In this document: piece by piece, positions 34,184-58,436 of the stretch
Numbering within the stretch: the stretch's first letter is position 1
How the letters are laid out: every line of letters begins with the position of its first letter
Source: Ctena decussata
Lineage: Eukaryota; Mollusca; Bivalvia; Lucinida; Lucinidae
Direction of reading: 5' to 3'
Length of the DNA: 64,000 nt
Assembly (NCBI GenBank): GCA_963989385.1
Contig: OZ022515.1
Coordinates: 3,938,803-4,002,802, forward strand
The notes under the pieces: model-generated
Databases searched by the model: none
Told to the model about the DNA's origin: nothing
What the model saw: the letters and a program-made list of their open reading frames with translations, nothing else
Program-made: the position numbers and the translations under genes

Positions 34184-34260
34184 TCAGTATGAGTATTTCT
34201 GCACTACGGCTTTGAGCTTTTTCATGGTATCTTCCACGTCTTCCAGGTTCTTAATGGCCT
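34184..34260 (-). CDS. ROCO-HEPN exon 7: C-terminal coiled coil and stop
   Basis: The acceptor tgtattttttgcag leads into a 77-nt exon. AG completes the Glu codon begun by exon 6, then AIKNLEDVEDTMKKLKAVVQ and KYSY are read before TGA at 34184-34186. Joined to exon 6, it extends the helix QKLQLKLKELEE with heptad-like Leu/Val/Ile spacing. The matching phase, helical continuity and stop support it as the true last exon, although it sits 3.5 kb from exon 6. The alternative is that exon 6 is terminal and stops at 37727. Confidence 0.7.
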
Positions 34261-35667
34261 CTGCAAAAAATACATTTATTTTAAACCAGAAGAATCGTTT
34301 GTGCGCAAAAACCAACTTTTATATCGATGTTATGTCAACAGGAATGTGCTCAATTCATTTAATTAAGTATTGGAAGATATTAAAAGAAACATTTTGGCAT
34401 GTTTTTTCTCTACACAAATATATACAAATTGCGATTGGCAAGCATTTGTTTGCGCTAAGTACGTATGTTAAATTGATGTAAAAGTTAGCCATGCTTTGTT
34501 AGTTACAGTATATTTCTGATCAAGATATCGAAACCATCTTCAACAAAACGTCGAATACATTTAAAATATTTAGGTATTAAGGACACAGGCAAACGGTGCA
34601 AGGTCAAATCAGACATCGCAGTTTACACTTTTGCATTATATTCAGAGCAGTTTCAATTGATGAAAAATAAATAAACCTAATATCCCTTAGGAATGAAATT
34701 ATTTCATTTATACGAATATAATACTGGTTAGATCCATCGATTTTGCTCTGAAATCCGAATTATTAACTACTGAACAGTTCCTACCCTTCCAAGATGAAGT
34801 GGAGCTAGACTTAGTTCATAAATGCTTACGAATTGCATTCAGACACACCTTGGCCTCATAAAAAACACTGTCTGACAAACGGAATGTTGAGTTTTCAAAA
34901 TGACTACCGTATATTTTATGTATAACTAGCGCATGAGACTATGCGCGTGTAAAGTTTCGACAAAATTTCCTGACAGTATCGGATGGGATGCAAGAACGAG
35001 TACAATCAAATATACCCGCTGGCGGCCATATCGGTCGACGAATCGAAATTATTTCCAATATACAGAATTAAGACTCAATTTGAAAAGAAAGGCAAAAGTC
35101 ATGAATTGATACAATTAGGTCCCATACCCCGCCTTCAAAACAAAAAAGAAAAGAAGTTTATACACAAACTGCCACAAACTCCCGGCAGTACTAACTAATG
35201 AAAAATATTTATATGTCTGAAACTTCATGTATTTTACAAATGCATAAAACGAATTCTCTGTAATGTTACACAGAATTGGCACGGATCAATACGAGCAGTA
35301 ACGTCGCTTGAAGAACAAATATCCGCCACTGAGCTAAACATATAAGCATTTTTAGATGTTCTACATTGATAAAGACGATGCTGACACCGTCCTTTGATTA
35401 AGTATACATACCCCTGTCTCATTTAAGAATTACAAGACTAGGGTGTGCAATTTAACAAATATATACTCTCTGTACAACGTTTTGATTGCCGATTCTTTTG
35501 GTTAAGACCCAGTTGTAAAATTATTTCAGTCAGTTTTAAAAGTATGTAATCAAGTCAGTAGTATGCAATTTTTATTATGTGTTGCTCGATAGGAAAACAC
35601 TATATAATTAATCCGCGCTCCTAAAGCACCCGTCAGTCTATAAACGGAATTTATTCGGAAGCAAATA

Positions 35668-35844
35668 CAGTTGAACTTCAATGGCTCGAACCCTAATGGC
35701 TCATTTACTCTGCCTGGCTAAAACTCTTTCCCTGGTCCCTAGATGTCACAGTATATAGAAACTAACCTTGGATGACTAGAATTACCTTTGGTTGGAACTA
35801 ATTTTCTTAGTACCAAACCTTTTCGAGCCAATGAAGTTCAACTC
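35668..35844. mobile_element. 177-bp MITE with TA target duplication
   Basis: CAGTTGAACTTCAATGGCTC at the left and its inverse GAGCCAATGAAGTTCAACTC at the right, flanked by TA on each side. A TA target fits Tc1/mariner-type MITEs. No coding content. Confidence 0.85.
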
Positions 35845-36409
35845 TATAATGTTTTGCAGTATCTGATCTGGGTCGTCATTGTTCGCTAGGTTGCTAGGCT
35901 ATTAACAGCCATGTACAATAATTATAGTACATGCGCGCTGTGCGAAATCCTTTGCTAACCAAACTCGTTGCTTTCAAATTGCTGTTTATTAAAAAAAGAG
36001 AAGAAATGCAATTAGCCATCAACGCTAATAGCCATCATATATAAGTTAAATGACCACAATCAAGGCATATTAAAGTCCTTTCCTTATGTTAATATTTTTG
36101 TTGTTATCGTTGTTGTTTTTTTAATATAACCCACAAAGATGGGATAAAATCCTTCTAAAACGAACATTAATAAAACATGCATCTGAAAAGTAAAAAGGAC
36201 CTGTTTGGTCAGCTTATTGCTATTGACTTAATAATCACTGGTTGACATTTGCAACGCCGGATAAACGCTAACTGAAAAACAAGAATCGTCAGATTAAGAA
36301 CGAAAATAAAGTTCGATTTCGCGGGAGCTTGACTTTAACAAGCGCAGGTTTAATATGGACAATACTAGCCAAGTAAAGTGAGAGCAGCTGCAGTGTCAGG
36401 ACCCTATGC

Positions 36410-36740
36410 AATTATGTTCATACATCAAATGGTCTGCAACATATAAGGCGTAATCACTGGACCATGAAATAAAGGTCAATTTCTACTACTGCTAGTTTTG
36501 GGTCCATTTTCTTAGTCATACTAATTCATTATCCCAAGCTATCATGTACATACATCAAACAGTCATCAAGATATAAGGTAAAATCACTGGTCTCTGTGAC
36601 CTTCTGTTAGTTTGAGATCAAATATCCGGACATAATGAGTCATTATCAGAAGGATCATTTTCGTGTTTCAAAAAGTCTTCCAGTTATAAGAATAAATCAA
36701 TAAAACCATGAAATAAAAGTCACTGTTACCTACATTCAGT
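36410..36740 (+). repeat. Tandem repeat units, forward copy of the 32.7-kb array
   Basis: AATCACTGGACCATGAAATA and ATATAAGGTAAAATCACTGG link this block to 32690-33060. Confidence 0.7.
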
Positions 36741-36744
36741 ACAC

Positions 36745-37470
36745 CATCGTAGACGTATCCATCGAGCAAGTGCTAAGGCTCTAGCCCTTGTGGTTACTTA
36801 GAAACTGAGCAAAAAGCTAGAGATGAATATTTTTCTATGTTCAATTTACCGTAAAATACGAAACATGGTCCAAATCGAATCATTGTTTTCCGTATATATT
36901 TCGCAGACGTATTTGTGGAGCAAGATTAAAGACTCTAGTCCTTGCGGTTACCTAGAAACTGCGCTAAACGCAACAGGTGCATATTTTGTCTATCATGTTG
37001 AATCACCATTGAAATATAGGTAACAACCCAATATGCATCGCTTGCTAAAGTAGAACGCCCCCAAATGTGTCTATCTTGCAAGTTAGAAGCTTCTGGCCCT
37101 TGTGGTTAATAAGAAACTGAGCTAAACGCATAAGATGAATATTTTTTTCTATATTCAATTTACCATATAATAAAGGTCAGGACCCAATGTTTATCGCAGT
37201 TTTCTGGAGATCTTCCACGGACCTATCTTTGGAGAAAGCTTGCAGAATCTAGCCCTTTCAGTTACATCGACATTAAACTAAACACAACAGGAGAATACTT
37301 TATTATATGTGCAATCAACCATGAAATATAATATAGGTCATTGCCCAATATACTCGCTGCTTTCAGTAGATCTTCCGCCGACGCATCTATGGAGCAATGT
37401 TGAAGACTCTAGTCCTTGTGGTTACTTAGAAACTGAGCTAACCGCAACATGTGAATATTCTTACAAGGCG
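36745..37470 (+). repeat. Tandem array, unit about 160 bp
   Basis: Five units share GAAGACTCTAGTCCTTGTGG and TTACTTAGAAACTGAGCTAA.CGCAACA. Starts lie near 36746, 36902, 37066, 37216 and 37377. The 66- and 82-codon plus frames here are repeat translations. CACACGCACGCGCA-type sequence follows. Confidence 0.8.
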
Positions 37471-37761
37471 CACACGCACGCGCAGCAGCACGAGAACGCA
37501 CACGCGCACCCGGATGTATACGAAGGGTATTGCGAAAGCATATGTGTATTGAGCTAAAATGTGTATTTTAAATTCTTTCATAAAATTCACTTTTGGAATT
37601 TCTTGTGCTAAAACACTCTTATAGAGGTTGTAAAAGACATCTGCATGAATGCATGATAGTCCTCACTGTATTTCGTGTAACGGAATAGATCAAACGAAAA
37701 TGTTATTTCATAGTGAAAAGCAAAAACTATTGTTGAATGGTGAATGAAATTTTTAAATTAC

Positions 37762-38440
37762 CCTCAAGCTCCTTTAGTTTCAACTGAAGTTTCTGAGCGT
37801 CCTTTGAGGTGAAGACCTGTTTTTTTCTTTCCTCTAATGCTATGCGGTAGCCTTTTGGACCTATCGAGCTTTCGATGTCATCCATTATTGCACTTATTTC
37901 ATCCCAGTAGTTTTCAAATAGACGATCCTCAAGTCGCCCGTCCGCGGAATGGCCGTTAACAAGGTTTCGGCAGATTCGTATACGCTCCACATTGGCTCCA
38001 ACCGATGTGTCCCTTGGCTGAGCAGTCGTTGGTCTACCCCATCCTGTCACAGGTGCTGGAACTGAACTTATGTTTCTAATTAAAGTATATAACAAAGTAA
38101 TATCAAACTGATCAAGGCTGCCTGTGAATTGCCCATTTGGGTCAGGAAATAGAAGGTCTAATTGCTCTTGTCTAAGTTGTCTCAGTGCTCTTAACGTAGG
38201 TTCGTTTGCTAATAGCGCTGCGTAGATGTCGGCGAACCCATGTGGAACATGGCTCAGAAGGATATCTCTAAGACCATCAGCACACACTGTAACCAATACG
38301 TTACAAAGACGTGCAAGGTTAATGTGCTCCTTTGTCATTGGTGCTTCCGCATTTATTTCTTCCATATCAGAGACTGGCATTTTCTCCTGGCCGGCACATC
38401 CACCGACAGCTATTCCCGTTGACTCTCTCTCATCCTGCTC
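37762..38440 (-). CDS. ROCO-HEPN exon 6: DZIP3-type HEPN domain
   Basis: The exon starts after tttatttcag and adds 20 residues (from EQDERESTG) before the first Met at 38380. It ends at GAGG|GTAATT, 679 nt in all. Features from that Met: NLARLCNVLVTVCADGLRDI near residue 21, PDPNGQFTGSLDQFDITLLY around 79-98, VPAPVTGWG around 108-115, and the motif Arg138-NLVNG-His144-Ser. The NxVRH-like spacing R-x5-H is the HEPN active-site or RNA-contact motif. The pattern of these blocks matches the HEPN domain of DZIP3 (an RNA-binding ubiquitin ligase in vertebrates), without RING in this window. If the last intron is retained, translation stops at 37727 after eleven further residues. Confidence 0.9.
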
Positions 38441-39392
38441 CTGAAATAAATGATAGGATATTTAAACAAAACAATATTTGATCTATTTTGGAATGAAAAC
38501 CATTGACAGGGACGAACTATTCTAACCCACAAGACTCAGGGATTTCAAACAAGTCTGAAAGAATCGAACTTATTTCTGCTATGGAAGAACCAGAGCTCTT
38601 TTTCATAATTTGTGATATGATATCTAAATTTATCAGTATGCTTGCTTTTGTCTTCTGTGGATATGCGATCGCCTCATGAGGGGAAAATGGAGTCGATGGT
38701 TTTGCTGGAAGTTCAACATTTTATGACTGAACGTAGAACTACTCCTTTACTTGGTGGCAGCAGAGGGCTGAAATTTTGACAGTGGTACTCTCTAGTGATC
38801 GTTTCCCTGCCTTGATTTATTTACATCCATATAGTAATTTATTAATAATATCAGACGTTTATGCTCACCCTCACTCTTATTATTTCATATTGAACGTTCG
38901 TGATGATCTGTCACCCACACACCGCCTATTTAGAAGAGGGAAAAAACCGAGGTTTTATAGCTTAACATACCTAGCTGCTTCATTAATATGACCTTCGTAT
39001 TTAATCGTCTTCCTACACAAATGATTAAATGAAAGTGTGAATAGATAATTGTTGTGAATAGATAATTGTTGGAGCTATTTAAACATAACAAATATTTTGC
39101 GTTGAAACAGAAGGTGTAAAAAAACATGTAAATGCACTTGCACACATTTTGCACAAAACTACCGTCTTATATGCTAATGCAGATCTAATTTATGTGTATT
39201 TACACTCTATATGCACAGAACTTTTTACTATTAATTCCAGTGCAACAAGTCTGTAGCTGACATTGCTAATGCAGGTTTACTCTGAAATGTCGGAAATCTA
39301 AATTTGACAGATCAGAAGTGTTTTCTAGTATACCAACATGGCTTTGCGTACGATTTAGGCTCTGTGGCACATTAAAATATACTTTTATTTAC
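38441..39392 (-). other. ROCO-HEPN intron between exons 5 and 6
   Basis: No repeat family recognised; AT-rich, with GATAATTGTTG duplicated near 39045. Confidence 0.5.
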
Positions 39393-39956
39393 CATGCCTA
39401 TCCAGCCTCCAAGAAGGTTGTGTACATTCAATAAATGTGACTTTTGGCATTTGTCGCATGCTACAGCTTCTTGGTTGATCATATCACTAACGTCCAGGTA
39501 TCCACCACTGTCTGTAGGAGAGTATCGTGGGCACTGAATACATCGACAAAATTTGTCTGACAATCCCATGGCCTGAAGAATACTTCTTAAGCTTTGAGTG
39601 AGGAATTCCTGAACGGGTTGGCAAACGGCATGGTGTGGTTGTTCTTTATCCACAAAACTCTCTATTCTAGCATGAACAGCATAATTTACAAGAAACAATG
39701 TCAGCTTGTAGAGGCTTGCCTTGTCAAGATTGAACTTACAAACCCCAGAGAATATCAGCTTTCTTCCTTTCTGATCAACTATAGACCACCTAGTGATACA
39801 CATAGCTATCAACTTCTGAAATATCGCTGGTGGTAGAAAGTGGTTCTCTGCAACCATGCAAAATATAGTAGTGCGAGACGAACCTTCCAAATTTGTTATT
39901 AGACGTTTGTCAGCTTCTCTGCGTACCATACAAGGTATGATATAACGTACGTCTTT
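39393..39956 (-). CDS. ROCO-HEPN exon 5: COR-B and Cys/His cluster
   Basis: This 564-nt exon of exactly 188 codons runs from acceptor cttgattccag to donor ATG|GTAAAT. It opens with KDVRYIIPCMVRRE, the usual start of COR-B (xYxxPCxL). LPPAIFQKLIAMCITRW follows, and the usual alternating beta/alpha pattern comes after it. Near the C-terminus is a cluster of possible metal ligands: Cys137, Cys139, Cys142, Cys167, Cys170, His174 and His179 (exon numbering). It ends with the hydrophobic LLGGWIGM. Whether the cluster binds zinc is inference. Joining to exon 6 is in phase 0. Confidence 0.85.
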
Positions 39957-40165
39957 CTGGAATCAAGAAAACCGTAAATTCAAACTCACAAATAGTGCTC
40001 ATTTTAACTAGTTATTGTCAATTATCTCCGCATACTTCACTGAAATGGGTGAAATGTACCTTTTTGAGCCTACATCACGTCAAACTAAGACTTCATGTTT
40101 GCTTCCCTGGACGACGAATCTCTTTCAGTGTTCCTGTTTTGTATTTTGTCCATTTATATCAGAAA

Positions 40166-40339
40166 CGAGAAGCGACTGTAGCGTAGTGGATAACATCCCG
40201 GACTACCAATCCAGGGGTCGCAAGTTCGATCCCCCGCTTCTCCGGTCTTTCGGATGAGACTTTAAACCGAGGTCCCGTCTCCATATGACCTCGTTGTTGG
40301 TGGGACGTTAAACTCGAGTTCACTCACTCACTCACTCAC
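40166..40339 (+). mobile_element. tRNA-derived SINE with 11-bp target duplication
   Basis: TATATCAGAAA lies on both sides (40155-40165 and 40340-40350). The head has AGAAGCG pairing with CGCTTCT like an acceptor stem, a TAGCGTAGTGGATAACA A box and a GTTCGATCC B box. The body reads GGTCTTTCGGATGAGACTTT and AAACCGAGGTCCCGTCTCC, then a GTGGGACGTTAAACTC block and an (ACTC)n tail. The body resembles V-domain SINEs described in bivalves (RUDI-like), which is a recollection not a search result. Inserted in the intron between ROCO-HEPN exons 4 and 5, antisense to the gene. Confidence 0.9.
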
Positions 40340-40764
40340 TATATCAGAAAAGCATTTTAAAATTTTGCCGAAACCGATCCAAACATTATTAAAGCTATTG
40401 AAAATTGGAGCTATTTCATATTATGATAGAGACTCTATATGACCGTGACGCCACTCATCGGTATTAAACTTACACAATTATAACACCTTATTGCTCAATA
40501 AAATTACAGGTAAACCAGAGTCAAGCTAGCTGCTTGACCATAAATAATGACCTTTCCTCACGATATGAAAATTCAAAGAGTAACTACTCTTCAGGAACTG
40601 ACTGAATCAGATCCCAGACCCTATCCCCAACATCAAAGTTCATTTAAGTATATTTTGACCAGTAGTATAGACATTTCAGAGACATTTATGTAAAACTAAT
40701 GTGTGACGCTTAAATATACACTTCATGCGGCATACCTGTACACGAAACAATCAAAAATGTGTAC

Positions 40765-40907
40765 CTCAGTTTCCTCGACGTTTGCGTCTAAGTCATCAGG
40801 AACAGCGACAGGAGCAGCAATAAATAGAAATTTCTCCATCAGACGAATCACGTGCTCATGGTTTGCATACAGACTTGGATCTTCTTTGTTCTTTTCAAAA
40901 ATACCAA
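40765..40907 (-). CDS. ROCO-HEPN exon 4: COR, LMEKF segment
   Basis: This 143-nt exon has the acceptor gttttatag and the donor GAG|GTACAC. It reads GIFEKNKEDPSLYANHEHVI then RLMEKFLFIAAPVAVPDD, ending in an acidic stretch ANVEETE. The LMEKF motif is typical of the linker between COR-A and COR-B, where ROCO proteins switch to the second subdomain. It ends exactly on a codon, matching the phase 0 start of exon 5. Confidence 0.8.
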
Positions 40908-42086
40908 CTATAAAACATATTGGGAAATACGACTCAGGCAATGCATACACAAATAATATCCGTCAATAGTCAACAAATCAACATTTTAACAATACACGGG
41001 AAAACAGTATCAAGCCTAAAGGTTTTCACAATCAAAACCAAAGACAGAAAATGGTTTATAGTTTATGGTTTGTATATTCTCATGTTCGCAATTGAAAAAC
41101 AAAATCTTTTAAAGGGCGAAAAACCATGTTGAAAAACAACATGTACATTCGAGTACGTTTTGTAAAAAAACCTTTAGGAATAATGTTGCCTGTGTATATT
41201 TTATGCAAACAATGATGTATACATAGAAGGTTTTTAACTTTTAAACTTTCAAATTATTAGCGACGAATTCAAGGCCGCCATTAGCTGAAAAGTATTAAAT
41301 AACTGACATTGAAATGTAAGGAAAAAGGCCACCGAACTTCGTCATTCGCCATGTGAAAAACTGATTAAAATACATTAAGTTATTATGCAACGAAATCTCT
41401 TTTATAGAAAAAATGGCTGCATAAACCAAACATTTTGTTGTTAGGTCTGTTATTGATACATTGTTTATGATGTTAAGGCTAGCCCGTTGACCGACTACAT
41501 GGGAAACGGCTGTTTATACGGCTGCTGCTAATAATGTCCATGGTGGTTACTAGTTTTGTGTTTTATTTTCTCACATGGTGTCTTGGGTGGGATATTGGAT
41601 TGCATTGTGTCAGTTCCTATTTACTGTTACAACAGTGCAATAGAATTGTGGCAGGTAAAACAAACATTTTGACAAAAAAGACACAATTAAAAGGTGAAGT
41701 GTGTTAAGTCTAGTACGTTTTTAGTTGATCTTAATATGGGGACTTTCACTACTGTCTCACAAATACTTTGATAATCTTCTTATGTCATGCGCCTGTCTCT
41801 TTGTCTGCACAATCAACAAATATATGGAAGCTGGCCTTTGTAAACTGAGGCTTACTTTCTATAAAAATACTCGAGGACTTTAAGAACGCCTCAACCAAAA
41901 ATGTGACGTATTTCAGTAAATCCGCATTTCAAGTTATTTAGTATAGTTAGGTTTTATTAGAAATTGTACAACTAATCAATTTAAACAAATTGCAGGAATT
42001 TATGTATGTCAAGTGTGACGACCTTTGCACTTAACTGGTCAACGTCACTGCCCCTTAATTTTATTTAAAACGTCCTTATATTACAG

Positions 42087-42196
42087 CTCTTGAAGTCGAT
42101 CTCAGCTTTTCCAGGAAAAACATCCTCCCCCGTAAAAACAAAATTAAGGTCGTCATGACTTCATTTGCTGTCAGACAGCTTAAATTGAAGACTTGA
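42087..42196 (+). other. Weak candidate coding exon
   Basis: After cttatattacag a plus-strand frame reads LEVDLSFSRKNILPRKNKIK, then VVMTSFAVRQLKLKT and TGA. It has an acceptor and a stop but no recognised family. It lies antisense in a ROCO-HEPN intron. It could be a transposon or chance frame. Confidence 0.2.
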
Positions 42197-42820
42197 ACAC
42201 ACAAACTGGGATCCCGAAAAAGTGATTTTCTGAAAAATAACGCATTTTTACGTTTTACACGGCACATAAACAATATTCGATACAAACATCTTACAGATTT
42301 ACTTTCTAAGCATCCGCTAACATCAATAGATGTTTTGATATCACCACCAAACGTCCGTTTTGCCGCGCAAAAATGACGTCAACGTCATTGATTCCACTCC
42401 TAACGGACTCAAAGCTTCACATTTTAACGACACGCGGTTCTAGGGTAGACAACTATGAGACGTAAAATACTGTTTGGGTGAATTGATTGCTGTCGGTTTG
42501 GATGTTTAGTGCCATGTTGAAAATGCTAGTTTTGAATTCCGCGAGCATTTGTTTACCTCGCTTCAATTCAGTAATAATTGTTGAACTAAGTGGCAGACGG
42601 AAACCACTCTATACGCCGAATAAACATTCGGACGGTGCATTATGACCGTTTTGGTGAAATTCCCGCGTTTTTATACACACTTTTATCTTTGTCGCATGTA
42701 TTTAAACAAACAAATTTTAAGATTGTAGCGATGATTATCTTTGATACATGATTGCATTTTTTATCATAAGCTTTATTTTAGCTAATAATACAACAATTGC
42801 AGCATTTCAATTTCTTTCAG

Positions 42821-42922
42821 CTGAGGCGTTTTCAAAGTCCTCGAATATATATTCACTCCTCCTATGGCAGTTTCAAGACGTAGAAAATGTTTGTCTGGCG
42901 ATAAATTTTCAAATTCTCGACC
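42821..42922 (+). other. Weak candidate internal exon
   Basis: This 102-nt segment is bounded by a good acceptor (atttctttcag) and a strong donor (C|GTAAGT). One frame is open throughout and includes SNIYSLLLWQFQDVENVCLA. It is antisense to ROCO-HEPN, with no recognised family and no confirmed partner exon. Confidence 0.2.
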
Positions 42923-43533
42923 GTAAGTAAAATTTGTAACTTCGAGAATTTGTCACGTAATCGTACGGTCAGATACAATGATTGACCTTATGTCAGTTCT
43001 AGGTCAATGTGACCTATATTAAACATTTCATTTATAATGTCGTATCTCTGGCTATATTTTAAAGGTTTGACTTACTCTTAGGAAATATGATTTGTTTTAC
43101 TTTGCAGTTGATCTCACTTCACTTGGCCGGTATTGTCCTGTTTAATCTTTTGTTTGTTATATTAAGGCTCCTATAAGTTACTTTTTTATTGTCTTCTAAC
43201 AATTTTTATTACAAAATACAAACGCCCTATCTCTATTTTAGACATATTATGCAACAAAGCACCTAAATTCTTCGAATTTGTTGCTTCAGACTAGCGATTT
43301 TGAAATGAAATTGTATCTAGTCAATTTCATACGTATTTAGACTCTAACAACAATGCTCATTTTCAACAGGAGAATCCATTTATAAGAAGCGTTTTCGACT
43401 GGATATAAGGAGATATACTTTTTCACACAGAACTATAGATCATTAGAACAATATCTAAGAACACACGGTGAAAGTCCAGTACTTTAAATCAGTTTAAATC
43501 GCGGCTTAACGTTCACTGAAAACTCTGACTAGA

Positions 43534-43650
43534 TCAAGTTTCAACCACACTGTACACGTATTCTTCGACCCAGTTAGAGACTTTGAACACCTTGCCATAT
43601 TGGATGTCAGAGGCATACGCCAAGTCACAGATCCCCACATAAAGTAAGTA
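43534..43650 (-). pseudogene. Possible S1 serine-protease C-terminal fragment
   Basis: A minus-strand frame reads VGICDLAYASDIQYGKVFKV then SNWVEEYVYSVVET and a TGA at 43534-43536. The order GI, Cys, Tyr-x-x-VFxVSNxV resembles the last strand and C-terminal helix of trypsin-like proteases (GVYTRVSNYVDWI). No catalytic Ser block or clear acceptor was seen, so this is at best a fragment. It sits inside an intron of ROCO-HEPN on the same strand. The opposite strand is also open and ends at a good donor (AAA|GTAAGT near 43643), so strand is uncertain. Confidence 0.25.
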
Positions 43651-43848
43651 ACTTAATTAAACCTTTTTTAAATGTTAACGGTTAATCTTCAGATGAGATG
43701 ATGGAGTTAGGACCGTTAGAGCATAAATATTTTAGTACTATTACGATCATCTTGCTTAATATTTGGACAAATACAATAGCTAGAAAATAAAGGCCCTGTT
43801 TTTTTCGCAAACCAAAATCGACAAAAAATCCAGTTTTTTCTCATTTTT

Positions 43849-43884
43849 TATACGCCCGTCGTGACCTCCGTCCGTCCGTCTGTC

Positions 43885-43915
<31 letters not shown>

Positions 43916-46015: not shown

Positions 46016-46176
46016 CAATGGCTGAGCGACTAATAATTCCAGATTCACAGAATTCTTTCCACTGTTTGTCAAGTGTTGGGATGCGGATTGCAAACCTATC
46101 AGCCGTAATAAAAGTTTTGAGCCCGTCTATCAACCATACTGGGTCCAGTACGACATTGTCACGTAAAAGTTTGTCA
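46016..46176 (-). CDS. ROCO-HEPN exon 3: COR-A, VLDPxWLID segment
   Basis: This 161-nt exon follows a strong pyrimidine tract (ttcttcttttcag) and ends at TTG|GTATGC. After one base that completes Ser, it reads DKLLRDNVVLDPVWLIDGLK, followed by TFITADRF. The VVLDPxWLID...IT motif is the most recognisable block of COR domains, and its position after FLHxxG in exon 2 is as expected. The last base (G) joins TT of the next exon to give Val. Confidence 0.85.
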
Positions 46177-48500: not shown

Positions 48501-48750
48501 GGTATACGGACACGTGGTAATATCTAATTTACTTTTAGATGGAATCTTAAACTCCCAAACGAAAACTGCAGGCCGCCAACACTTAAATTGACAGAAAATA
48601 AACGTTTCAAATAGACTCGTCCAGTCTATTGATATAACACCATGTGTCATATCTTTTCTTGTTTAATATTCAAAGCAGTCCTCATAGAAGACAGAGCAAG
48701 TTTTATTCGTTTGTTCAAGAAGATAATTTACCTGTAGGGATTATCAACTT

Positions 48751-48926
48751 ATGGATGGATGGATGACATGCGATTTTACATCCTTTCAATAGTATTTCAG
48801 TCATATCTGGACGATGGGAGGGTGCAAATGAAAGGCTGTGTGCAATTGAACCCAATTTACGATAATTGAAAAGATTCCCACCTCACGCGGGTCTCGGTCG
48901 CTTATCCTACTGGGCTACCGGAACTC
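48751..48926 (-). mobile_element. SINE family S1, reverse copy
   Basis: Reverse strand: tRNA-like head CCGGTAGCCCAGTAGGATAA, then TTGCACACAGCCTTTCATTT, TATGACTGAAATACTATTGA, AAGGATG and an (ATCC)n tail. Confidence 0.8.
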
Positions 48927-48975
48927 CTCAGTATCAAGAGATAGAGATATATCATGCTATCGCTTATCTATACTA

Positions 48976-49174
48976 AAGGATGGATGAATGACGTGTTTTT
49001 ACGTCCTTTATAACAGAATTTAAAACATATCAGGACGATGGATTGGTGATAATGAAAGGCTGTGTGCAATGGAACCCCGTTCATGGTTGAAAATATTCCC
49101 GCGGGGCTTGACCTCGGAACCGCTAGATCAGAAAGCCATCATCTAAGCTTCTGATCGAGCTACCGGGTCTTCTG
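48976..49174 (-). mobile_element. SINE family S1, reverse copy
   Basis: Reverse strand: CCCGGTAGCTCGATCAGAAG head, CCATTGCACACAGCCTTTCA body and AAAGGACGTAAAAACACGTC tail with CATCC. Confidence 0.8.
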
Positions 49175-49384
49175 TATACTACAGGCATCAGTGAAGGTCT
49201 TTAGTAAGTATTTCTTGCTGACAATGGGGGTAGGGGTATGTAGAACTAGGATCTGTGATGTAAGATAATTTATGTTAAGAATAAAATTTCTCTATTGAAC
49301 TATACCCCGCTTTATTTTGGTGTATCTAGAGTTACATGACATAGTACCAAAGAGTCGTTTTGTAATTTAAATGTGTAGATATAA

Positions 49385-49720
49385 ATCATTTCATTTGAAG
49401 GTTTGAAGATATGAAATAAGTAAGCATAATCAAACGTGTACATGTAGTTTGTTCTGCGAAGTTCGGAACTTGGAATTCGGAAATCAGAAGTCGGAATTCG
49501 GAATTGTGAAATAGTATGGAAATGAAAAGTGAGCCAATTGGGCCATCGTAGTTACGTCTGTATATATCAATCATTACATTTGAAGGTTTGAAGATATGAA
49601 ATAAGTAAGCATACTCAAACGTGTAGTTTGTTCTACGAATTTCGGAACTTGGAATTCGGAGTTGTGAAATAGTATGGAAATGAAAAGTGAGCCAATTGGG
49701 CCATCGTAGTTAAGTCAGTC
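49385..49720 (+). repeat. Near-identical duplication, unit about 187 bp
   Basis: TGAAGGTTTGAAGATATGAA and GAGCCAATTGGGCCATCGTA occur in both halves. The second half lacks part of the GGAATTCGGAA cluster. Confidence 0.85.
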
Positions 49721-49772
49721 TTAGTTTTAGACTATTCTAGACTATTTTAGACATTTTTCGGGATAGGATAAT

Positions 49773-49842
49773 CAATGGACGGATGACTGCTGATTGTGCG
49801 TCCATTTCAATGGTATTTTAGGCATATCAGGAGGATGGTAGG
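49773..49842 (-). mobile_element. SINE family S1, 3' fragment
   Basis: TGGACGGATGACTGCTGATT and GTATTTTAGGCATATCAGGA match the tail of family S1 in reverse. The head is missing. Confidence 0.55.
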
Positions 49843-49933
49843 TTTATAAGGCATATGTCATCTGTAGTTAACATTTTAAAATATTTCAAATTTTGGAATT
49901 TTTATATACGAGATATCAAATCATGTCATTAAC

Positions 49934-50055
49934 CTATAATAGACAGTTTCTCCTGTTTGGTGGAGGAACAGGAGATATGCATCCATTTCGGTATCGTTTG
50001 TAATGTTAACATCTAGCCCTCTGTTTATGGTCTTCAGTTCTTCGAGAGCAAGCAC
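49934..50055 (-). CDS. ROCO-HEPN exon 2: COR-A, FLH-G segment
   Basis: This 122-nt exon has the acceptor tttttccacag and the donor ATAG|GTTAAT, so it is too short for an ordinary open-frame search. It enters in phase 0 straight after GRK and reads VLALEELKTIN, then TEMDAYLLFLHQTGETVYY. The spacing of LxxLH, a glycine and an aromatic is the classic COR signature seen in ROCO and LRRK-type proteins. It ends with two bases of a split Ser codon completed by the first base of the next exon. The neighbouring intron carries a mariner relic at 50250-51575. Confidence 0.8.
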
Positions 50056-50249
50056 CTGTGGAAAAATAGGATAAAATGTTGCCATATCAATGTGGGTATA
50101 ATGTAATAAAAATATACTTGTTGGAGGTTAGCTTAGAACGTCTGAACGCAGTGCGGGTATCAAACATGAAATACATGATACAAAGAAATATAACTATTTG
50201 TACAAAGCAGAAGGAGGAAGAGTAAAAGATAAAAATGCTGCAATAAGAG

Positions 50250-51575
50250 GTGTGTTCTAAAACTAATATCAGTGTAGATTTTTTTCGCGAAAATCAAGCC
50301 TTATGGGCTCCAAACTAACTCGTGTTGATAGGGTGATCACTAAAAGCGTACCATGGATAAAAATAATCTTGCTCGCAACTTCACTCCCATGCATTTGGAC
50401 TGTGTACATTTCTTTAAAGCATACACAAAGTGACTGAGAAAAGAGCCAACGACGTGCTTTAAATTGTTACCTTTAAATGAGGTAAGTAGCAACTTGGTAT
50501 AAAACCTGTCGACATTCCCTGTGAGGAATGCGAAATTTATGGAAGGGACCAAATGTCTCAAGACAATTTGCAGGTGGGTAGCTAAATTTAAAAGCGAGCA
50601 GCACAACTTGAGTTTGCTGCTCACACAGGCCGCCCTGCAACAACAACGGCTAAAAGTAACATAAAAAACGTAATACCATACAAATAGATGTCCGATTAAC
50701 AGTGAGGCAACTAGCTCGGTTGACAAACGTTTCCTTGGCACGAGTTCGTGGTATTTTGAAGAAGCATTTAAAGCTTAAGAAAATAAATGCAGGATGGATA
50801 CTCGATTTTTTGACAGATAAAAAAAGAGGACCCGTGTAGAATATGCAATAGAAAAAATCTTCAAAGTAACCAAAATATAGCACAAAGGTTTTCAACAATT
50901 TAGGCTATGGTAATGAGACCTGGTTTTACAATTCTGAACCAAAGCGGAAGTATTCCAACCGAATTTGGGCCAACAGAAATTCGAGACGCCCAAGTATTAC
51001 CAAACGAACACGAACGGTAAAGAAGGTTTTATATGTAATTTTCTTCAATAATAAGGGTCCAGTCATGCAAATGCCTGTGCCAATAGGCAGAACAGTCAGA
51101 GAAATGTTTTAGAAAAATGTTGTACTAAGAAAACTAAAGAAGAACTAGAAAACCTGCCGCCCCAAAACAGGACTTTAGCACCTCAGACTTCTTGCATGAT
51201 GATGCTACCACTCCCAATGCACACATTGTGACCTAGCTTTTGGAGCCAGAGAAGGTCACCGTCCTACCACATCCTCTATTTTTCGCTACACTTGGCTCCC
51301 TGCGACTATATTGTATTCAAAAAAACAAATATCATCTATCTGTAAAGATATACATTTCGAGAAATGCCCTTGGACAGCTGCTTATCAGTATCTGATGGGT
51401 GTCCCCGATGAAGAGTATAAAAACTGCTTGCGAAAATGGATTGACCAGAACAAAGGCGTATTCAGGTCGACGGAGGGTAATTTGAAGAGCAGAGCAAGTC
51501 AAAATGATTAGAACATTTGCCGTTTGCAGTAAGTAGAAACAATGCAAGTGACATTACTTTTGGAACTTCTCTCGC
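50250..51575 (+). pseudogene. Degenerate mariner-type transposase and element
   Basis: Fragments in several frames, broken by stops and frameshifts, follow the order of a mariner transposase. Helix-turn-helix pieces CRWVAKFKS and VRLTVRQLARLTNVSLARV come first, at about 50560-50740. HLKLKKINARWI follows at about 50760, then FNNLGYGNETW, PKRKYSNRIWANRN and PSITKRTRTVKKVLYVIFF across 50890-51045. Next come LHDDATTPNAH and EKVTVLPHPLF, then a C-terminal YQYLMGVPDEEYKNCLRKWI at about 51380-51450. Ends near 50250 and 51575 share an imperfect inverted repeat (TTCTAAAACTAATATCA versus TTCCAAAAGTAATGTCA). It is an old, inactive DNA transposon inside the intron between ROCO-HEPN exons 1 and 2. Confidence 0.8.
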
Positions 51576-52435
51576 ATCTAATGGAATATTTAGTTTTATC
51601 TCATACTAGTGCATGGATAAATCAGACAGGCTGAAGACAGGGACCTTATCCAATTGTCAATGCATGATATATCGAATATAACTACATGTATCTGTAGTTG
51701 TGGCCAGCTAATTGTTGCAAGAATAAAAAAATATGATATTTCGAAATCAACAAAAACGAGGATATTATAGCTATACAATTACCGAAATCTTAATGTGGAA
51801 AAACGAAATAAAGCCACCATGCACCAAATGTTCAGGACACTATAAATTTAAAAACACAGCTGAACAATGATGATAAATATGATGCGACATCTGATTAGAT
51901 AACATAAAAAAATTTGCGGGTATAATCCTATGACAAACTATAAGAGACCCAATGATTTTCCGAGCACTTTGATTCACATTGACTCACATCTAGTTTTCTG
52001 TCGCTGAAAGCGCTTGCTTTGGTGCAAAGTAATATACTATAAAAAGTGAGGTATACTTTCGCATGGTTTACTGTAATTCTGGGAAGAAAAGATCGCATCC
52101 TTAGAGCAAATATTTCGCCTCAACAACTGACAATTTTAGTACAGTTATGCTCCGAATTTAAACATATTTAAATGACGACAATAAAAGTTTAAGAAAGTTT
52201 AAGAGGAGTGCTGACATCCTCAAAGGATCAGTCCGACTTGAAAATATTTGTTTTACCTCTGATATAGTATTTTCTTAACCAAAATGATAACCCAGAGGAA
52301 CGCAAATTAATTCCTATAGACTTTAATTAAATTCTGAAAGAGGATCCACAGACAATAATTAACACATCAAATAAACAAAAATAGCAGATTCTGATTTCCT
52401 GGGTCGGCTCATGCGTGTTGTTGTTATGTTGCAAC
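51576..52435 (-). other. Intron sequence, nothing recognised
   Basis: AT-rich intronic DNA with no repeat family or frame of interest. Confidence 0.4.
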
Positions 52436-52640
52436 ACTGTCCATGACCCTAGCACCGACGTCAACATAACATTTTTTCCAAATTGCTCCTAGTTCTCAAG
52501 GATTTAAATAAACCAGACAATTTATCAACTGTCCACGACCCTAGCACCGGCGTAAGCATAACATTTTTTTCAAAATTGCTCCTTGTTCTCAAGGATTCAA
52601 ATGAACCAGACAATTTATCATCTGCACCATGATGATCAAT
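52436..52640 (+). repeat. Tandem duplication, unit about 93 bp
   Basis: CTGTCCATGACCCTAGCACC and CTGTCCACGACCCTAGCACC begin two successive copies, each with CATAACATTTTTT and GTTCTCAAGGATT. Related to 63680-64000 (CCTAGCAG). Confidence 0.85.
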
Positions 52641-52845
52641 TGAGAAACTTTTTTTATAGCCGCCACAATGCAAAACACAAGTTTCAGTGCAGAGAAAATA
52701 AAGTCTGAATAAAGTTTCCCTGGAATCAATGAAATATCAAAGAAACAAAACTTGCAGACGCGACTGAATTGAGTCTATTCATATACGGCGATGAAATGTC
52801 GCCAAAATGTCATGTTCCCCCTCCCTTCCCCCCACACCATCAGAC

Positions 52846-53420
52846 ACATCAGACACACCATCAACGGCTTTAGCGAAACTCTATTTTCAAACTGAACGCA
52901 CAAAGAAACCAATGATCCCAAACGATTAGATCAAGTATAATATGCACTATGATAATGTACGGGGAGACTTTCTTCGGTTGCTTAAGGGCACTTTACCAGC
53001 CGCACTTAAGAGAAATGAATTCTGATAAAGGATCAGACACACCATCAACGGCTTTAGCGAAACTCTATTTTCAAACTGAACGCACAAAGAAACCAATGAT
53101 TTCAAACGATTTGATCAAGTATAATATGCACTATGACAATGTACGGGGAGACTTTCTTCGGTTGCTTAAAGGCCGTTTACCAGCCGCACTTAAGATAAAA
53201 TGAATTCTGATAAAAGATCCTCTGAAAGCAACAAACGCATCAAGGAAACGCACTTGAACGTCAGTTTTACTAGAACTCGTTTTTCAAACTGACTCAAAAT
53301 GAGGCAAATGAGCCCACAGAATTTTGTTTTTAATTTGCACTATGATGCCGTTAAAGTAAAATAATTTCTGAACAAAGATCCTCTGGTAGCTAGAACTAAA
53401 AAAAAAAGAATGAAATTAGC
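52846..53420 (+). repeat. Tandem repeat, unit about 183 bp
   Basis: CAGACACACCATCAACGGCT recurs 183 bp later with few changes through GTACGGGGAGACTTTCTTCG. A third, diverged unit follows (GCACTATGATGCCGTTAAAG). The 84-codon frame here is the repeat. Confidence 0.85.
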
Positions 53421-54356
53421 AGACCCGGTTTAACTGATTCTATCTATATGCAGTAATATAATGTTCCACAATGCCCTTATTCCTAGCACCTTGTCAGTGC
53501 TGCGGCCCAGTTTCGATACACAAAACTGACATGTGGCAGGTAGCTTATCACCCAACAAAGGTCGGTCTCTTTCTGCACATTCCTACATCATGCATTAACA
53601 CGGATTCTCTCCTTTGAGAACGCCTCCGTAGGTTTTGTTGTTTGGTTGTGGAGGGGGGGGAATACAATATAAGTAGCTACTAAATATTTCAGAAGTGATT
53701 CAAATACCAGATAATATGGCATAACGGCAACAATGGCATACCTTTCCGAATGTGGGATGTTTAAGACAATGTCCTTTCGAACGTAATTATTTGTTAAGAT
53801 AAATTATGAAGGTGGACTATATTCAATGCCGCTAGTGAATGCCAACAACCGATTAACACCGTCAAGTATCGTTAAGGGTGAGCCAGTGTTACAAAGGATC
53901 TGGCATGATAAAGACTGTTCTTGGTCCCTTTTCAAATTCACTTGAAATCACATGGTTTCTACTGCTTATCATTTGAGTAAATGTCGACATAAAGAAATAT
54001 TATGCTATTTTTATTTGAATTCGCAGGATAAGGATTTCTATTATGCATGTGCATTTTTTGTAGTTATAAAGAAAATTGCAAGAAAAGAGCACTTCCTTTA
54101 AATGAATACAACAATAACAGTAGCTTTCAAAGCACTTGATAATAGGCTTCTTTTGATATGCAATCGTAGCACTGAGAACCAGAGGTGCACTGTGCATTAT
54201 TTCATGTTACCCCATTCACGAAGATCGCATGTCGAGATTCTCTAAACAACAAAAAACAAGAAACCAAATGAAATAAACAGATCAATTGAACTCTTTATCA
54301 AATGAATCCATGTGTCCTAACTGAGAAACGGAGTACCTACAGACCAACATATGTTT

Positions 54357-54402
<46 letters not shown>

Positions 54403-56235
54403 GATATGAGCCTCTTTATGTTGCAAAAGTTGGAAATATGTCCCAAAGGTCGCGACTTTAATAACAATATAGACAATAATAATAATAATAATAATACACA
54501 TACAACCCGGCCTCAAGCACATTTTATATTTTCATGGCATGTTAACATATAAAATATAAATATCTTGTCTGTATGCAAAATATGTGCTGGGGGCCAGGCT
54601 GACATATTCTGAAAGCCACAAACTTGTCCAAATTCTTAATTTTCGTAAAAATCATCTCGGGGTAGAGGTATGTTCGCGATTAAAAATCCAAAGTTCTATG
54701 TCTGAACTGACTTGATTTGTGCTTGCTGTTATATTCTAGGTCGGAACTTTGCTGTGGGCATCATCAATAATAAATGAAACAAATAAATCAGAATAACTTT
54801 AAAATTTGCATTTTTGAGTTTTCTGAGGGCCAAATTTGGTACTTATTGTATCAAGTCCTCTGCAAAGGATGAATATGCAAAACTTTGTATACGTCTGTTA
54901 CATTGATCTTTCGTCAGCATTATATCCAGATTATACCAGCTAATCTGTTGCAAAATATTTCATTAAGGAAGGCTGTAAATAGCATAAAATTTAACTTAAT
55001 AAAACAGTACGTTTACAGTCCATGACCTTGACCTTGACCTCTAGGCCACAAGTACGGGGGCTGGTAAAGAATAAGGTTTGAGTGCAGCATATTTCACTAT
55101 AACAAAATTAAACCAAAATCAAACAGAGAATAGTTAAGTTCAGCTCAGGTATTAGACGTTGTGACATACAGTATGGATAACAGCTGGATTTCCTACATTG
55201 TCTTACAGTAATGCAGCCTCGTTTTCACATATAGCGGTTCTAATGTTAACCGGCTTATGCTTCAAATGCAAAACCTGTGTTTACTTATTTTATGGAATGG
55301 TTCCCGGCTTCCTGCAGCAATGACATAATTATTTTATCTTATATAACTGAAATGCAATTATGGAATGTTACCAAAAGATAATTATCTCTCTCATGCAAAG
55401 TATTTTTTGACAAAATGCTGTATTTCCTGTATACTTAGTGCAAGAATTTTATGAACAACTGGAAAAATTCTGATCCCTAGCACAAAAATTATTTCTGATC
55501 TGCTTGGCTCAAAAGGTCAGTATTTTTTTGTTTGTTTTTGGTTTGGATGTAATAGACACTATTAGTGGGTGTTTTCTGGGGGCAGAACCATAGGATTATC
55601 TGAGTCCAGCCTTTAAATTTTGAATAGACATGTGTAGAAATCTGAATGGAAGAACCACCTTAAGTTGATGATATATGTTTAATAGAAATTCCAGACAGAC
55701 CTTATTTATTTCCAGGGCATAGGTTATGAATGTAGACAGTATTTATATCAAAACTTGAGATAAAAATAGGATGGAAAAGCATCTAAATACTTCAAAACAT
55801 TTCGGGGTGTCTTAAGGATAACTGACATGTGCCTTATAGAAATTAATGATTCAAGGGGCTTTTTAGATACAGTTTGTTTTCATTTTAATATAACACCAAT
55901 TTGAAGGCTATGGTTTCATATAGTGAAGTTTTTAGTGCATTGACAGACTATTCATTATGAAATTTGCCCTTGAAATAAGGTCCTTTTACTCAATGGAGTC
56001 AAGCTTAAAGTAATTTGGTATGACGTCATTCCATAGGAAGCCAATGATTGGCTGAGATCTGCTGCTGTTGTATTTATGAATGAGTATTTTAAGCAAGATA
56101 GTAATTGAGAGCGAGGCTTCCTTATCAGCAAGTAAAGTGTCAAATTTCGTTTGAGCTAGCTAGTATGTACACTGATATACCAAACAGTCCCAGTAATGTA
56201 AAAGTATGGAAACAACACAAAAGGGAAAGGCAAAC
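53421..56235 (-). other. Intron sequence with microsatellites
   Basis: Contains (TG)21 at 54359-54400, an (AAT)n run at 54472-54494, a poly-G run near 53650 and GACCTTGACCTTGACCTC at 55024. Otherwise unassigned. Confidence 0.5.
54359..54400 (+). repeat. (TG)21 microsatellite
   Basis: Uninterrupted TG dinucleotides over 42 bases. Confidence 0.97.
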
Positions 56236-56720
56236 TCAATAACCGGTTCTGTTATCTTGACTTCCAATCAGGAGTAGCATTTTGCTTATGTCAACATATC
56301 TATTGCAACCTAGAAGTAAACCTAGTCACATTTAACAAGTTTACATAGTAGTATATTTGAAAACTAAGCCAACAATGCGAGCGTATCATTACACTTCTAC
56401 ACAACTTCAATATTTGTGTCCTTGGACTTGGGTCAGGAGCAGCATCCAGCTGATGTAAATTGATTTATTGCAACCAAAAAGCACACCTGCCTATCTGGCA
56501 AACGTTTCTATTGAAGAATACTGAAAATATTATAAACAATAAACATGACGAAACACTTTGACGCTAATGTTTAAGTTTGTGACCTTGAACCTAGGTCAGC
56601 AGCAACATCTAGATGATGTAAACTGATATGTTGCAACCTAAAAGTAAATCTAAGCACATTCAAATGTTTCTATAGAAAGATATTGGAAATATGATATAAT
56701 GCATGCGTTGTTTGCTTTCC
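56236..56720 (+). repeat. Tandem array, unit about 175 bp
   Basis: Three diverged units share TATTGCAACCTAAAAGTAAA.CTA, then TTTCTATAGAAA.ATATTG and GTGACCTTGAACCTAGGTCA or similar. Confidence 0.7.
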
Positions 56721-56879
56721 AGCCTGTACGCTTCGAGGACCAGCTCACAATCTTTTAAAATTGCTTTTAGCCTTAGTATAACCACTGCACTGCTCGACAG
56801 TTAAAGCTGTGTAAGTAGTCATAGACTTGCCAATCAGGGTGCTTTGCAAAGTAAAGCAACCTATATGGTCGATGTACCT

Positions 56880-57475
56880 GTTTTCGGGTGCGCCAGAATT
56901 CGGGGTATTATGATAGATTATACCGCTTTCTTGTCAGAGACCTCTAAAGATGATTTTTTTTTTGCAAACAGAAAGTTGAATCAGTATGTTTCATCATACA
57001 CTACTTGACGCGCGACAACAGGTTAGTTGTGACGTCATCCATGACGTTGTCGTTAGTGACCGTGGAAGCGGCCATATTGGAAACACTGTAAAGCTTATGG
57101 AAAGTACCGCATAGATGACACGGTGTTTTATTTAATTATGATTTTTTTCTGATAATTCAAAGATCGTTTCTACAGCCTAAAGAATTGCAAGTCTCATCAA
57201 AACAGTTGTTTTCATTAGAATCTGCAGCTGATGCATTTTGAAGGCGACTTCTTTAACACACCCCGAAAACTGGGGCAGTTTCGGGGAGCAGATTCAGCCG
57301 AGCATCTGTGAGGAGTTGATCAAGTATGTAAACACGGCGACATGCTGACATGAAATGTAAGTTACAAATTACTGTACATATATTTTTATGTATACACTGA
57401 CCGTCAGTTTTTGATTTTTGTTTATCACACATTTTTTATGTTGCGACCAAATGTTAATACCCCGAAAACTGGTAC
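56880..57475. repeat. Loose inverted repeat around GTTTTCGGGG
   Basis: GTACCTGTTTTCGGGTG (56874) faces ACCCCGAAAACTGGTAC (57459), and TTATGATAG faces CATCATAATAA. In between is a TGACGTCATCCATGACG segment. Possibly an old TIR element. Confidence 0.5.
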
Positions 57476-58074
57476 AGCCATCATAATAAACAAAGTAAAT
57501 ATTATAATTTTCTACTCTAGGATGGTAATATACAAGTACAAAAAGCAAATACCTATGATACATAATAATAAGCGAAGCAGATAAACATAACGCAAAACTA
57601 TGTCGCAAATATTTAAGAATGTTACCTTTACCATACGACAGTAGCATCATTCTCACTAAGTCAACTAATCTGCTGTAAACACGAAGTAAGCCTTATAACT
57701 TACCAAAAGGTTTCATTGAATTATATTTGAAATACATCTATAAGTAAAAAAATTAAACTTAGCACAAAAGTTGAACGCAAAAGACTACAAATCTAGGTCG
57801 AAAGCATGCTTGGTACAGATTAAAACTTAAAAGCAACATCTTTTAACGTGCCACAGGCAAATCAAACACAACAGAGAGTTTGCAAAATTTGAAATATTAA
57901 ATAAACGTCTGAGAAAAGCTATTTACTCTTTATTATTTTTCGTATGCTAGGGATATAAAAGAAGAGTTTCTACTTGTCAGCTATAAACATAAAGCAGACG
58001 TGCCCTTAAGTATCCCCCACTCTAGAATTCAACCGATCCCTGATGCATATAGTCATATAATAAATAAGTCTAAC
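57476..58074 (-). other. Intron sequence next to ROCO-HEPN exon 1
   Basis: AT-rich, with no repeat recognised; the 95-codon minus frame ending at 57369 shows no domain. Confidence 0.4.
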
Positions 58075-58436
58075 CTTGCGACCAGATTCCTTTAAACGCT
58101 GAACTTCTCTGTCCAGTGGAAGCCACTTTGTTGGTGTTTTCTTTCCCCAACTTGACTGCAGCTTAGCCAGTTCAAATATCTCTGTTTTGAGCTGAGAGAA
58201 AGCTTCGGCATTTTTCTTCGAGTTATCAATTATAAATTCTGTCTCTGACAATATGGCATTTAATGGCGAGCCCGCAATTGCACTTCGAAATTCTCTGAAG
58301 AAATTAGAAACTACGGCATCTCGATTCGCCTTTGGTATTTTGTCACCATGGGTTCCAACAAGTATAACGTGTGGATGAGTTTCTGATTTAACTGCAGTAA
58401 ACATGTAAATGATGTTCAGCCAGAAGATTATGGATT
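58075..58436 (-). CDS. ROCO-HEPN exon 1 in window: C-terminal Roc and start of COR
   Basis: The acceptor ttttcag precedes 58436 and the donor AAG|GTTAGA follows 58075. The exon is 362 nt: two bases completing a codon, then 120 codons. It reads SIIFWLNIIYMF, then VILVGTHGDKIPK, then WLPLDREVQRLKESGRK. The first part matches the Roc core (FWLNxI), the strand before G4 and the THxD guanine-specificity motif. The tail WxxLxxxVxxLKxxGRK is where ROCO proteins pass into COR. The previous exon must end with a single base of a split codon and should carry G1-G3. Reading on past the donor gives a spurious extension to a stop at 58006. Confidence 0.85.

What the first reader, a model, noticed from the sequence alone, without database searches (positions are those of the whole stretch)
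34184..58436. ROCO GTPase fused to a DZIP3-type HEPN domain
Seven in-phase exons join Roc (THGD motif), COR (FLHxxG, VVLDPxWLID, LMEKF, YxxPC) and a HEPN domain with intact R-x5-H in one protein. Known ROCO proteins usually pair Roc-COR with LRR, kinase, ankyrin or death domains. A GTPase switch linked to an RNA-binding or RNase-like HEPN output would suit an innate-immune or RNA-surveillance sensor, echoing HEPN effectors in prokaryotic defence. The fusion is seen in the sequence; the function is inference.
Basis: partly seen in the sequence, partly recalled or inferred. Interest (0 to 1): 0.88.

Follow-up and report, generated by a model that had tools for sequence, protein, structure and literature searches.

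The report
GTPase gene fused to RNase-like domain
A mollusc-like gene really does join a molecular-switch protein related to the Parkinson's protein LRRK2 to an RNA-cutting-type domain; it belongs to a multi-copy family, so a switch-controlled RNA defence sensor can now be tested.

Summary
Confirmed and extended. Seven minus-strand exons (58436 to 34184) join in phase with GT-AG introns and encode 701 aa: Roc C-terminal half, COR, HEPN_DZIP3 with R-N-x4-H (COR-A 1.2e-13, HEPN 1.2e-22). The window cuts the gene: two upstream exons supply the P-loop and DFAGQ, completing a 989-aa Roc-COR-HEPN model. The fusion is not a gene-model artefact: 17 of 21 database hits hold COR-A and HEPN in one protein, as do records from two freshwater mussels. 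In the window's genome 11 of 11 family HEPN exons follow a same-strand COR-B exon. The two halves share one history (distance correlation 0.98); pairwise dN/dS is below 1. Many unnamed relatives add an N-terminal Rab8-like domain with a degenerate P-loop; none was found within 66 kb upstream here. Most likely mechanism, inferred: the Roc-COR cycle gates HEPN pairing and RNA cleavage in innate defence. Ten searches of an open-licence library found no paper on this architecture. Function is untested; one of ten paralogous copies compared lost the HEPN histidine.

The parts
58075..58436 (-). exon (third of nine in the full model): C-terminal half of Roc with G4 motif GTHGD, start of COR
   Evidence: tblastn 53-61% identity to the 5 relatives displayed
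58342..58356 (-). GTHGD, Roc G4 motif
   Evidence: sequence; most relatives GTHAD or GTHVD
49934..50055 (-). exon: COR-A first part (FLHQTGE)
46016..46176 (-). exon: COR-A second part (VVLDPVWLID)
40765..40907 (-). exon: COR-A end / COR-B start (LMEKFLFIA)
39393..39956 (-). exon: COR-B and tail
   Evidence: 13 such exons listed in the own genome
39447..39542 (-). C-x2-C...C-x2-C stretch, zinc-ribbon-like, in the COR-B tail
   Evidence: four Cys in the window and in 20 of 21 unnamed family rows (P0017 has Y for the second C); pattern absent in 8 of 8 unionid rows
37762..38440 (-). exon: linker and HEPN_DZIP3 domain
   Evidence: Pfam 1.9e-23 on the open frame 37727-38461; all-helical model, mean pLDDT 82
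37949..37969 (-). R-N-x4-H (RNLVNGH), putative HEPN RNase motif
   Evidence: sequence; R, N and H invariant in 23 of 23 rows of A3
34184..34260 (-). last exon: C-terminal helical tail and stop TGA
   Evidence: same exon at 76% over 25 aa in paralogue L022
33963..33968 (-). AATAAA, first polyadenylation-like signal listed after the stop

Best explanation
This is a single animal gene encoding a ROCO protein (Roc GTPase plus COR dimerisation module) whose C-terminal output domain is a DZIP3-type HEPN. Shown: the gene structure, complete GTPase motifs, the COR and HEPN domains, the retained HEPN motif, duplication within the genome with both halves kept together, and constraint on both halves. Inferred: the nucleotide cycle of Roc-COR, which in known ROCO proteins drives a monomer-dimer change, brings two HEPN domains together or apart. 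HEPN ribonucleases work as dimers that share the R-x4-6-H site (recalled), so the GTPase would switch RNA cleavage (or RNA binding) on and off. Also inferred: it acts in innate defence or stress, as one of several duplicated sensors analogous to NACHT-HEPN proteins.
For: Gene. Same fusion elsewhere: COR-A plus HEPN in 17 of 21 hits, Roc also listed in 16 of them; 8 unionid rows carry HEPN with Roc and/or COR. Own genome: 11 of 11 family HEPN exons follow a same-strand COR-B exon at 0.9-8.8 kb, 9 of 11 also a Roc exon. One shared history: pairwise distances of HEPN and Roc-COR correlate at 0.976 over 26 rows; family HEPNs form one clade against 3 other HEPNs, support 100/99. HEPN is the best-kept part, mean identity 66% against 51-58% for the Roc half, COR-A and COR-B in 17 unnamed rows. 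The motif is present in 25 of 25 fused relatives, and R, N and H are invariant in 23 of 23 aligned rows, the window included. dN/dS of the window gene against paralogues is 0.26-0.43 for HEPN (7 usable of 9) and 0.29-0.59 for COR-B (4 of 4). ROCO nucleotide-dependent dimerisation: PMC6337361 passages.
Confidence: 0.5

Rival explanations
1. The HEPN is a non-catalytic RNA-binding or dimerisation module, and the protein is a signalling scaffold rather than a nuclease switch.
For: One paralogue lost the histidine while its HEPN frame stayed open. The Pfam family is named after DZIP3, an RNA-binding ubiquitin ligase (recalled). No HEPN-RNase structure was matched significantly.
Against: R, N and H invariant in 23 of 23 aligned rows across unionids and the unnamed group; 194 of 202 pearl-oyster DZIP3-type HEPN proteins keep Rx4-6H (PMC9646362 passages).
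Confidence: 0.25
2. An active Roc-COR-HEPN protein with a housekeeping, stress or RNA-turnover role rather than immunity.
For: HEPN and COR-B show average purifying, not positive, selection; nothing in the sequence names a microbial ligand.
Against: Multi-copy on four contigs, with one copy carrying in-frame stops and variable linkers, which is usual for conflict genes (recalled); DZIP3-type HEPNs are repeatedly tied to NACHT proteins in immunity papers.
Confidence: 0.18
3. Two neighbouring genes, ROCO and HEPN, wrongly joined.
For: The COR-B exon can be read through to a stop after six codons; 2 of 13 COR-B exons have no HEPN partner; P0022 and P0023 end in the linker before HEPN; the linker at the join is poorly conserved.
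Against: One-protein fusions in 17 of 21 hits and in unionids (all gene predictions); 11 of 11 linkage in the own genome; tail exon also in phase and found in paralogue L022.
Confidence: 0.02
4. The window copy is a pseudogene.
For: A family copy on C7 has in-frame stops; the L022 copy has a changed motif.
Against: 989 aa open over nine exons with a P-loop, DFAGQ, GTHGD and R-N-x4-H; dN/dS 0.26-0.43 for HEPN.
Confidence: 0.03

Closest known systems
LRRK2 and other ROCO proteins (Roc-COR)
   Same: Roc GTPase followed by COR; the model of relative P0005 matches LRRK2 best (8tzf, E 4.5e-14) and archaeal Roco2 4wnr (5.9e-11)
   Different: No LRR, kinase or death domain found by Pfam at E <= 0.001 in the 989-aa model; output domain is HEPN
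Bivalve and cnidarian NACHT-HEPN_DZIP3 proteins
   Same: Same HEPN family with Rx4-6H, multi-copy; an NTPase module linked to HEPN (PMC9646362, PMC8260672 passages)
   Different: NTPase is NACHT and HEPN is N-terminal there (e.g. unnamed P0033, HEPN at residues 45-179); here Roc-COR and a C-terminal HEPN
Bacterial AP-GTPase(Roc)-COR conflict proteins with variable C-terminal effectors
   Same: Roc-COR core with an exchangeable C-terminal domain, at least 24 kinds (PMC8195603 section 15, read whole)
   Different: Bacterial, with N-terminal LRRs; HEPN is not among the effectors that the section's text names for this group (its figure and source data were not seen)
Mollusc TIR-ROCO receptors of Aplysia
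   Same: Roc-COR in a mollusc immune-type protein (PMC9334734 passages)
   Different: TIR/LRR partners; in the passages seen HEPN occurs only in a separate NLR-like protein

Membership tests
ROCO (Roc-COR) proteins | Roc G-domain with G1, G3 and G4 motifs | tested here: met
   GNGGAGKT, DFAGQ, GTHGD in the 989-aa model; Pfam Roc 6.4e-12. In the window alone only G4 is present.
ROCO (Roc-COR) proteins | COR directly after Roc | tested here: met
   COR-A 1.2e-13 and 1.8e-13 at residues 389-530
ROCO (Roc-COR) proteins | COR-mediated, nucleotide-dependent dimerisation | not testable with these tools
   needs purified protein
HEPN_DZIP3 (PF18738) | profile score over the curated cut-off | tested here: met
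   83.3 bits against cut-off 27
HEPN_DZIP3 (PF18738) | R-x4-6-H motif | tested here: met
   RNLVNGH, R-x5-H
HEPN_DZIP3 (PF18738) | helical-bundle fold like solved HEPNs | tested here: inconclusive
HEPN ribonucleases | RNA cleavage | not testable with these tools
   no assay
NLR / NACHT-HEPN receptors | NACHT or other STAND NTPase | tested here: not met
   no NACHT hit at E <= 0.001 in the 989-aa model; exons further upstream than the P-loop exon are not fully excluded
LRRK / DAPK kinases | protein kinase domain | tested here: not met
   no kinase hit at E <= 0.001 in the 989-aa model; same caveat for further upstream exons

The most novel reading that the evidence does not exclude
In many relatives (13 of the 17 fused hits list PF00071, and it is N-terminal in those scanned) the ROCO-HEPN protein also carries a Rab8-like domain that has lost the Mg-binding Ser/Thr of its P-loop in 15 of 15 rows with a recognisable loop. 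Such a degenerate Rab, fixed in cis to a LRRK2-like Roc-COR core, could be an integrated decoy or tether: a microbe that binds or modifies host Rab8-type GTPases would trip the Roc-COR switch and release the HEPN ribonuclease. That would be a three-part GTPase-guarded RNase sensor, and a natural Rab-ROCO fusion echoing Rab control of LRRK2. The window's gene itself shows no Rab exon within about 66 kb upstream, so this holds for relatives, not for this copy.
Probability: 0.12. Interest if true: 0.85.

Novelty: new variant of a known kind. Interest (0 to 1): 0.64.

Why it matters
It adds an RNase-type output to the ROCO family, whose human member LRRK2 is a main Parkinson's gene, and gives a small natural system in which the GTPase cycle could be read out as RNA cleavage. 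It also supplies an animal counterpart to bacterial Roc-COR conflict proteins with exchangeable effectors, and a second kind of NTPase core, besides NACHT, to which the same HEPN has been wired. If the Rab-like N-terminus of the relatives acts with it, it links Rab sensing, ROCO switching and RNA attack in one chain.
Full report
Observation. All six introns begin GT and end AG, phases agree at each join, and the chain encodes 701 residues and a TGA, with an AATAAA about 216 bases on. It has no internal stop; the composition-based chance is about 3e-22, which overstates the case because the exons were picked for being open. Pfam on the joined protein gives HEPN_DZIP3 (E 1.2e-22, residues 526-640) and COR-A (E 1.2e-13, residues 101-242). 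Exon by exon only HEPN is strong (1.9e-23), while the COR pieces are weak alone (0.003 and 0.17), so the COR call gains from the splicing. Archaeal Roc-COR structure 4wnr is found by sequence at E 1.2e-4.

The window holds only the C-terminal half of Roc; no stop-free fragment of 15 aa or more on either strand has GxxxxGK[ST], and the N-terminal parts of 13 full-length relatives gave no window hit below E 1. The window's genome is held (G000, 1.66 Gb, 245 contigs; window = C18:3938803-4002802). In the next 80 kb tblastn found two more exons on the same strand. One carries the P-loop (GNGGAGKT), C18:4017195-4016880 from an in-frame ATG, or from 4017144 if a TTTCAG acceptor is used; it lies about 14 kb beyond the window. 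The other carries DFAGQ, C18:4006112-4005567, about 3 kb beyond. Both have GT donors and join in phase to the first window exon. The complete model is 989 aa with Roc 6.4e-12, COR-A 1.8e-13 and HEPN 1.8e-22, and motifs GNGGAGKT, DFAGQ, GTHGD and RNLVNGH. Relative P0024 begins at the same residue as the ATG start (38% identity), which favours that start, but P0024 is itself a gene prediction.

Relatives in protein databases. A search with the 701 aa gave 21 hits (only the 7998 candidates sharing most words were scored): 19 with E below 1e-170, 17 carrying COR-A and HEPN together (16 also Roc), two (P0018, P0019) whose listed domains lack HEPN and whose sequences end inside it, and two NACHT-type HEPN proteins. 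A profile search added P0022 and P0023, which end in the linker before HEPN, and the fragment P0024. A HEPN-region search added eight named unionid proteins: seven from Sinanodonta woodiana and one from Potamilus streckersoni. On direct scan all eight have HEPN over cut-off, seven COR-A (not P0039), six Roc, and P0036 has an OTU domain. Among the named hits of these three searches none came from Crassostrea, Mytilus, Pinctada or scallops; that is an absence in searches limited by shared words and length, not proof. The unnamed group is from source 'ena', bears no organism and may represent few species.

Own-genome paralogues. PF18738 matches 38 places in G000 and none of 14 named control genomes. 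A search with relative P0005 separates those of this family: 11 HEPN exons and 13 COR-B exons (only 39 of 240 first-look candidates were scored, so counts are lower bounds). Every one of the 11 HEPN exons has a COR-B exon upstream on the same strand at 0.9-8.8 kb, and 9 of 11 also a Roc G4 exon further upstream; two Roc-COR loci (C7:92637797, C18:5110525) have no family HEPN exon. The C7:92664177 copy has in-frame stops. The stop flagged in the window's own COR-B row lies just outside the exon, where the match runs into the intron (my reading). Since the copies are duplicates, this is not eleven independent fusions; it shows that the two halves stay together through duplication.

Shared history and constraint. 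In trees of HEPN (29 rows) and Roc-COR (27 rows) the unionid rows separate from the window plus the unnamed group. In the Roc-COR tree the window is sister to the 17 unnamed rows (97/93); in the HEPN tree its place beside or within them is unresolved (82/57). Family HEPNs are one clade against three NACHT/CARD HEPNs (100/99), but those outgroups have long branches and the program warns of false joins. Pairwise distances of the two parts correlate at r 0.976 over 26 rows and 0.91 within 17 (0 of 2000 permutations reach either). HEPN is the best-kept part: mean identity to the window 66% in 17 unnamed rows and 50% in 5 unionid rows, against 51-58% and 31-36% for the Roc half, COR-A and COR-B; the linker at the COR-B/HEPN join is only 16% and the C-terminal tail 33%, and the unionid rows lack the tail. 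dN/dS (NG86, pairwise, no significance test) of the window against paralogues is 0.26-0.43 for HEPN in 7 of 9 pairs (two saturated) and 0.29-0.59 for COR-B in 4 of 4, one of them a 78-codon fragment; the copy with stops was left out. The motif occurs in 25 of 25 fused relatives, as R-x4-H or R-x5-H, and R, N and H are invariant in 23 of 23 rows of A3, which holds the window and 22 of those 25. Against this, paralogue L022 reads RNRVNAYS.

Rab-like N-terminus of relatives. 13 of the 17 fused hits list PF00071. In those scanned the first 160 residues or so score as Ras family (e.g. 1e-38 and 1.9e-45), and the family profile matches Rab8A best (4e-19). In 15 of 15 rows with a G-x4-G-[K/R] first loop the next residue is not Ser or Thr; P0018 has GDSYDGQE. 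DxxG is not recognisable there (my reading). The second P-loop (GNEGVGKS or close) and DFAGQ are intact in most rows; P0016 shows no second loop and P0022 no DFAGQ. No Ras-type N-terminus ahead of Roc is seen in the unionid rows or in the window gene's 66 kb of upstream DNA.

Mechanism. ROCO proteins change between monomer and dimer with the nucleotide, the C-terminal half of COR being a main dimer contact (PMC6337361 passages). HEPN ribonucleases act as dimers (recalled). Placing HEPN straight after COR-B through a flexible linker suggests that the Roc-COR cycle controls HEPN pairing and so RNA cleavage. The linker varies in length: 19-residue units occur two to five times in paralogues L008, L032, L033 and L035 and once in the window. 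This is inference; my confidence in fusion and orthology is above 0.95, in gated RNase or RNA binding about 0.6, and in an immune role about 0.5.

Known work. The HEPN survey lists DZIP3-type fusions to TPR, Zn-ribbon, RING, ankyrin, CARD, NACHT, DEATH and LRR; its table says 'Mostly conserved' in a column whose heading I did not see and take to be the active site; 'Roc' and 'ROCO' do not occur in its text (PMC3710099, passages). Bivalve and cnidarian papers report NACHT and HEPN expansions (PMC9646362, PMC8260672, PMC10236652; passages). Bacterial AP-GTPase-COR conflict proteins with at least 24 C-terminal domains are described (PMC8195603, section 15 read whole, the rest in passages). A ROCO review and a brown-algal ROCO paper do not contain 'HEPN' (PMC6337361, PMC11378527; term counts and passages). 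Aplysia has TIR-ROCO proteins and, separately, an NLR-like protein with HEPN (PMC9334734, passages). PMC7159879 and PMC13015404 were seen in passages; all other papers only in search listings. I found no paper on Roc-COR-HEPN in ten searches of an open-licence library; subscription papers and most preprints are not held. Sequence databases already hold such proteins under automatic names.

Verdict. A real, complete and recurrent ROCO-HEPN gene family, most likely bivalve. It is a new variant of a known kind with a plain testable mechanism.

Noticed in passing
relatives such as P0001, P0005, P0015, P0019, P0022: N-terminal Rab8-like domain with a degenerate first P-loop (no Ser/Thr after GK or GR in 15 of 15 rows with the loop) ahead of a Roc with intact motifs: a pseudoGTPase-GTPase tandem.
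   Followed up: partly
L008, L032, L033, L035: Linker between COR-B and HEPN carries two to five tandem 19-residue units (VGGCAGQEKVPVPDMEEID-like); one unit in the window gene.
   Followed up: partly
39447-39542: C-x2-C...C-x2-C, zinc-ribbon-like, at the end of COR-B in the window and 20 of 21 unnamed relatives, pattern absent in 8 of 8 unionid relatives.
   Followed up: partly
G000 C18:5505541-5506155 (L022): Paralogue with open HEPN frame but HEPN histidine changed to tyrosine.
   Followed up: partly
G000 C7:92664177-92664737 (L025): Family copy with in-frame stops, apparently decaying.
   Followed up: no
G000 C11:66242404, C3:3568819, C10:42834239, C17:21515393: Four further ROCO-like places at 27-35% identity in frames of 409-1248 aa (one with a stop), with no family HEPN exon listed near them.
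   Followed up: no
P0036, P0039, P0040, P0041: Unionid family members vary at the N-terminus: OTU domain in P0036, a CARD match below cut-off in P0041, and a propeller-like stretch by eye in P0039 and P0040.
   Followed up: no
40170-40340: Intron stretch that by eye looks like a tRNA-derived SINE (B-box-like GTTCGATCC); ARAGORN and Rfam found nothing in the window, and B-box counts are at chance level.
   Followed up: partly
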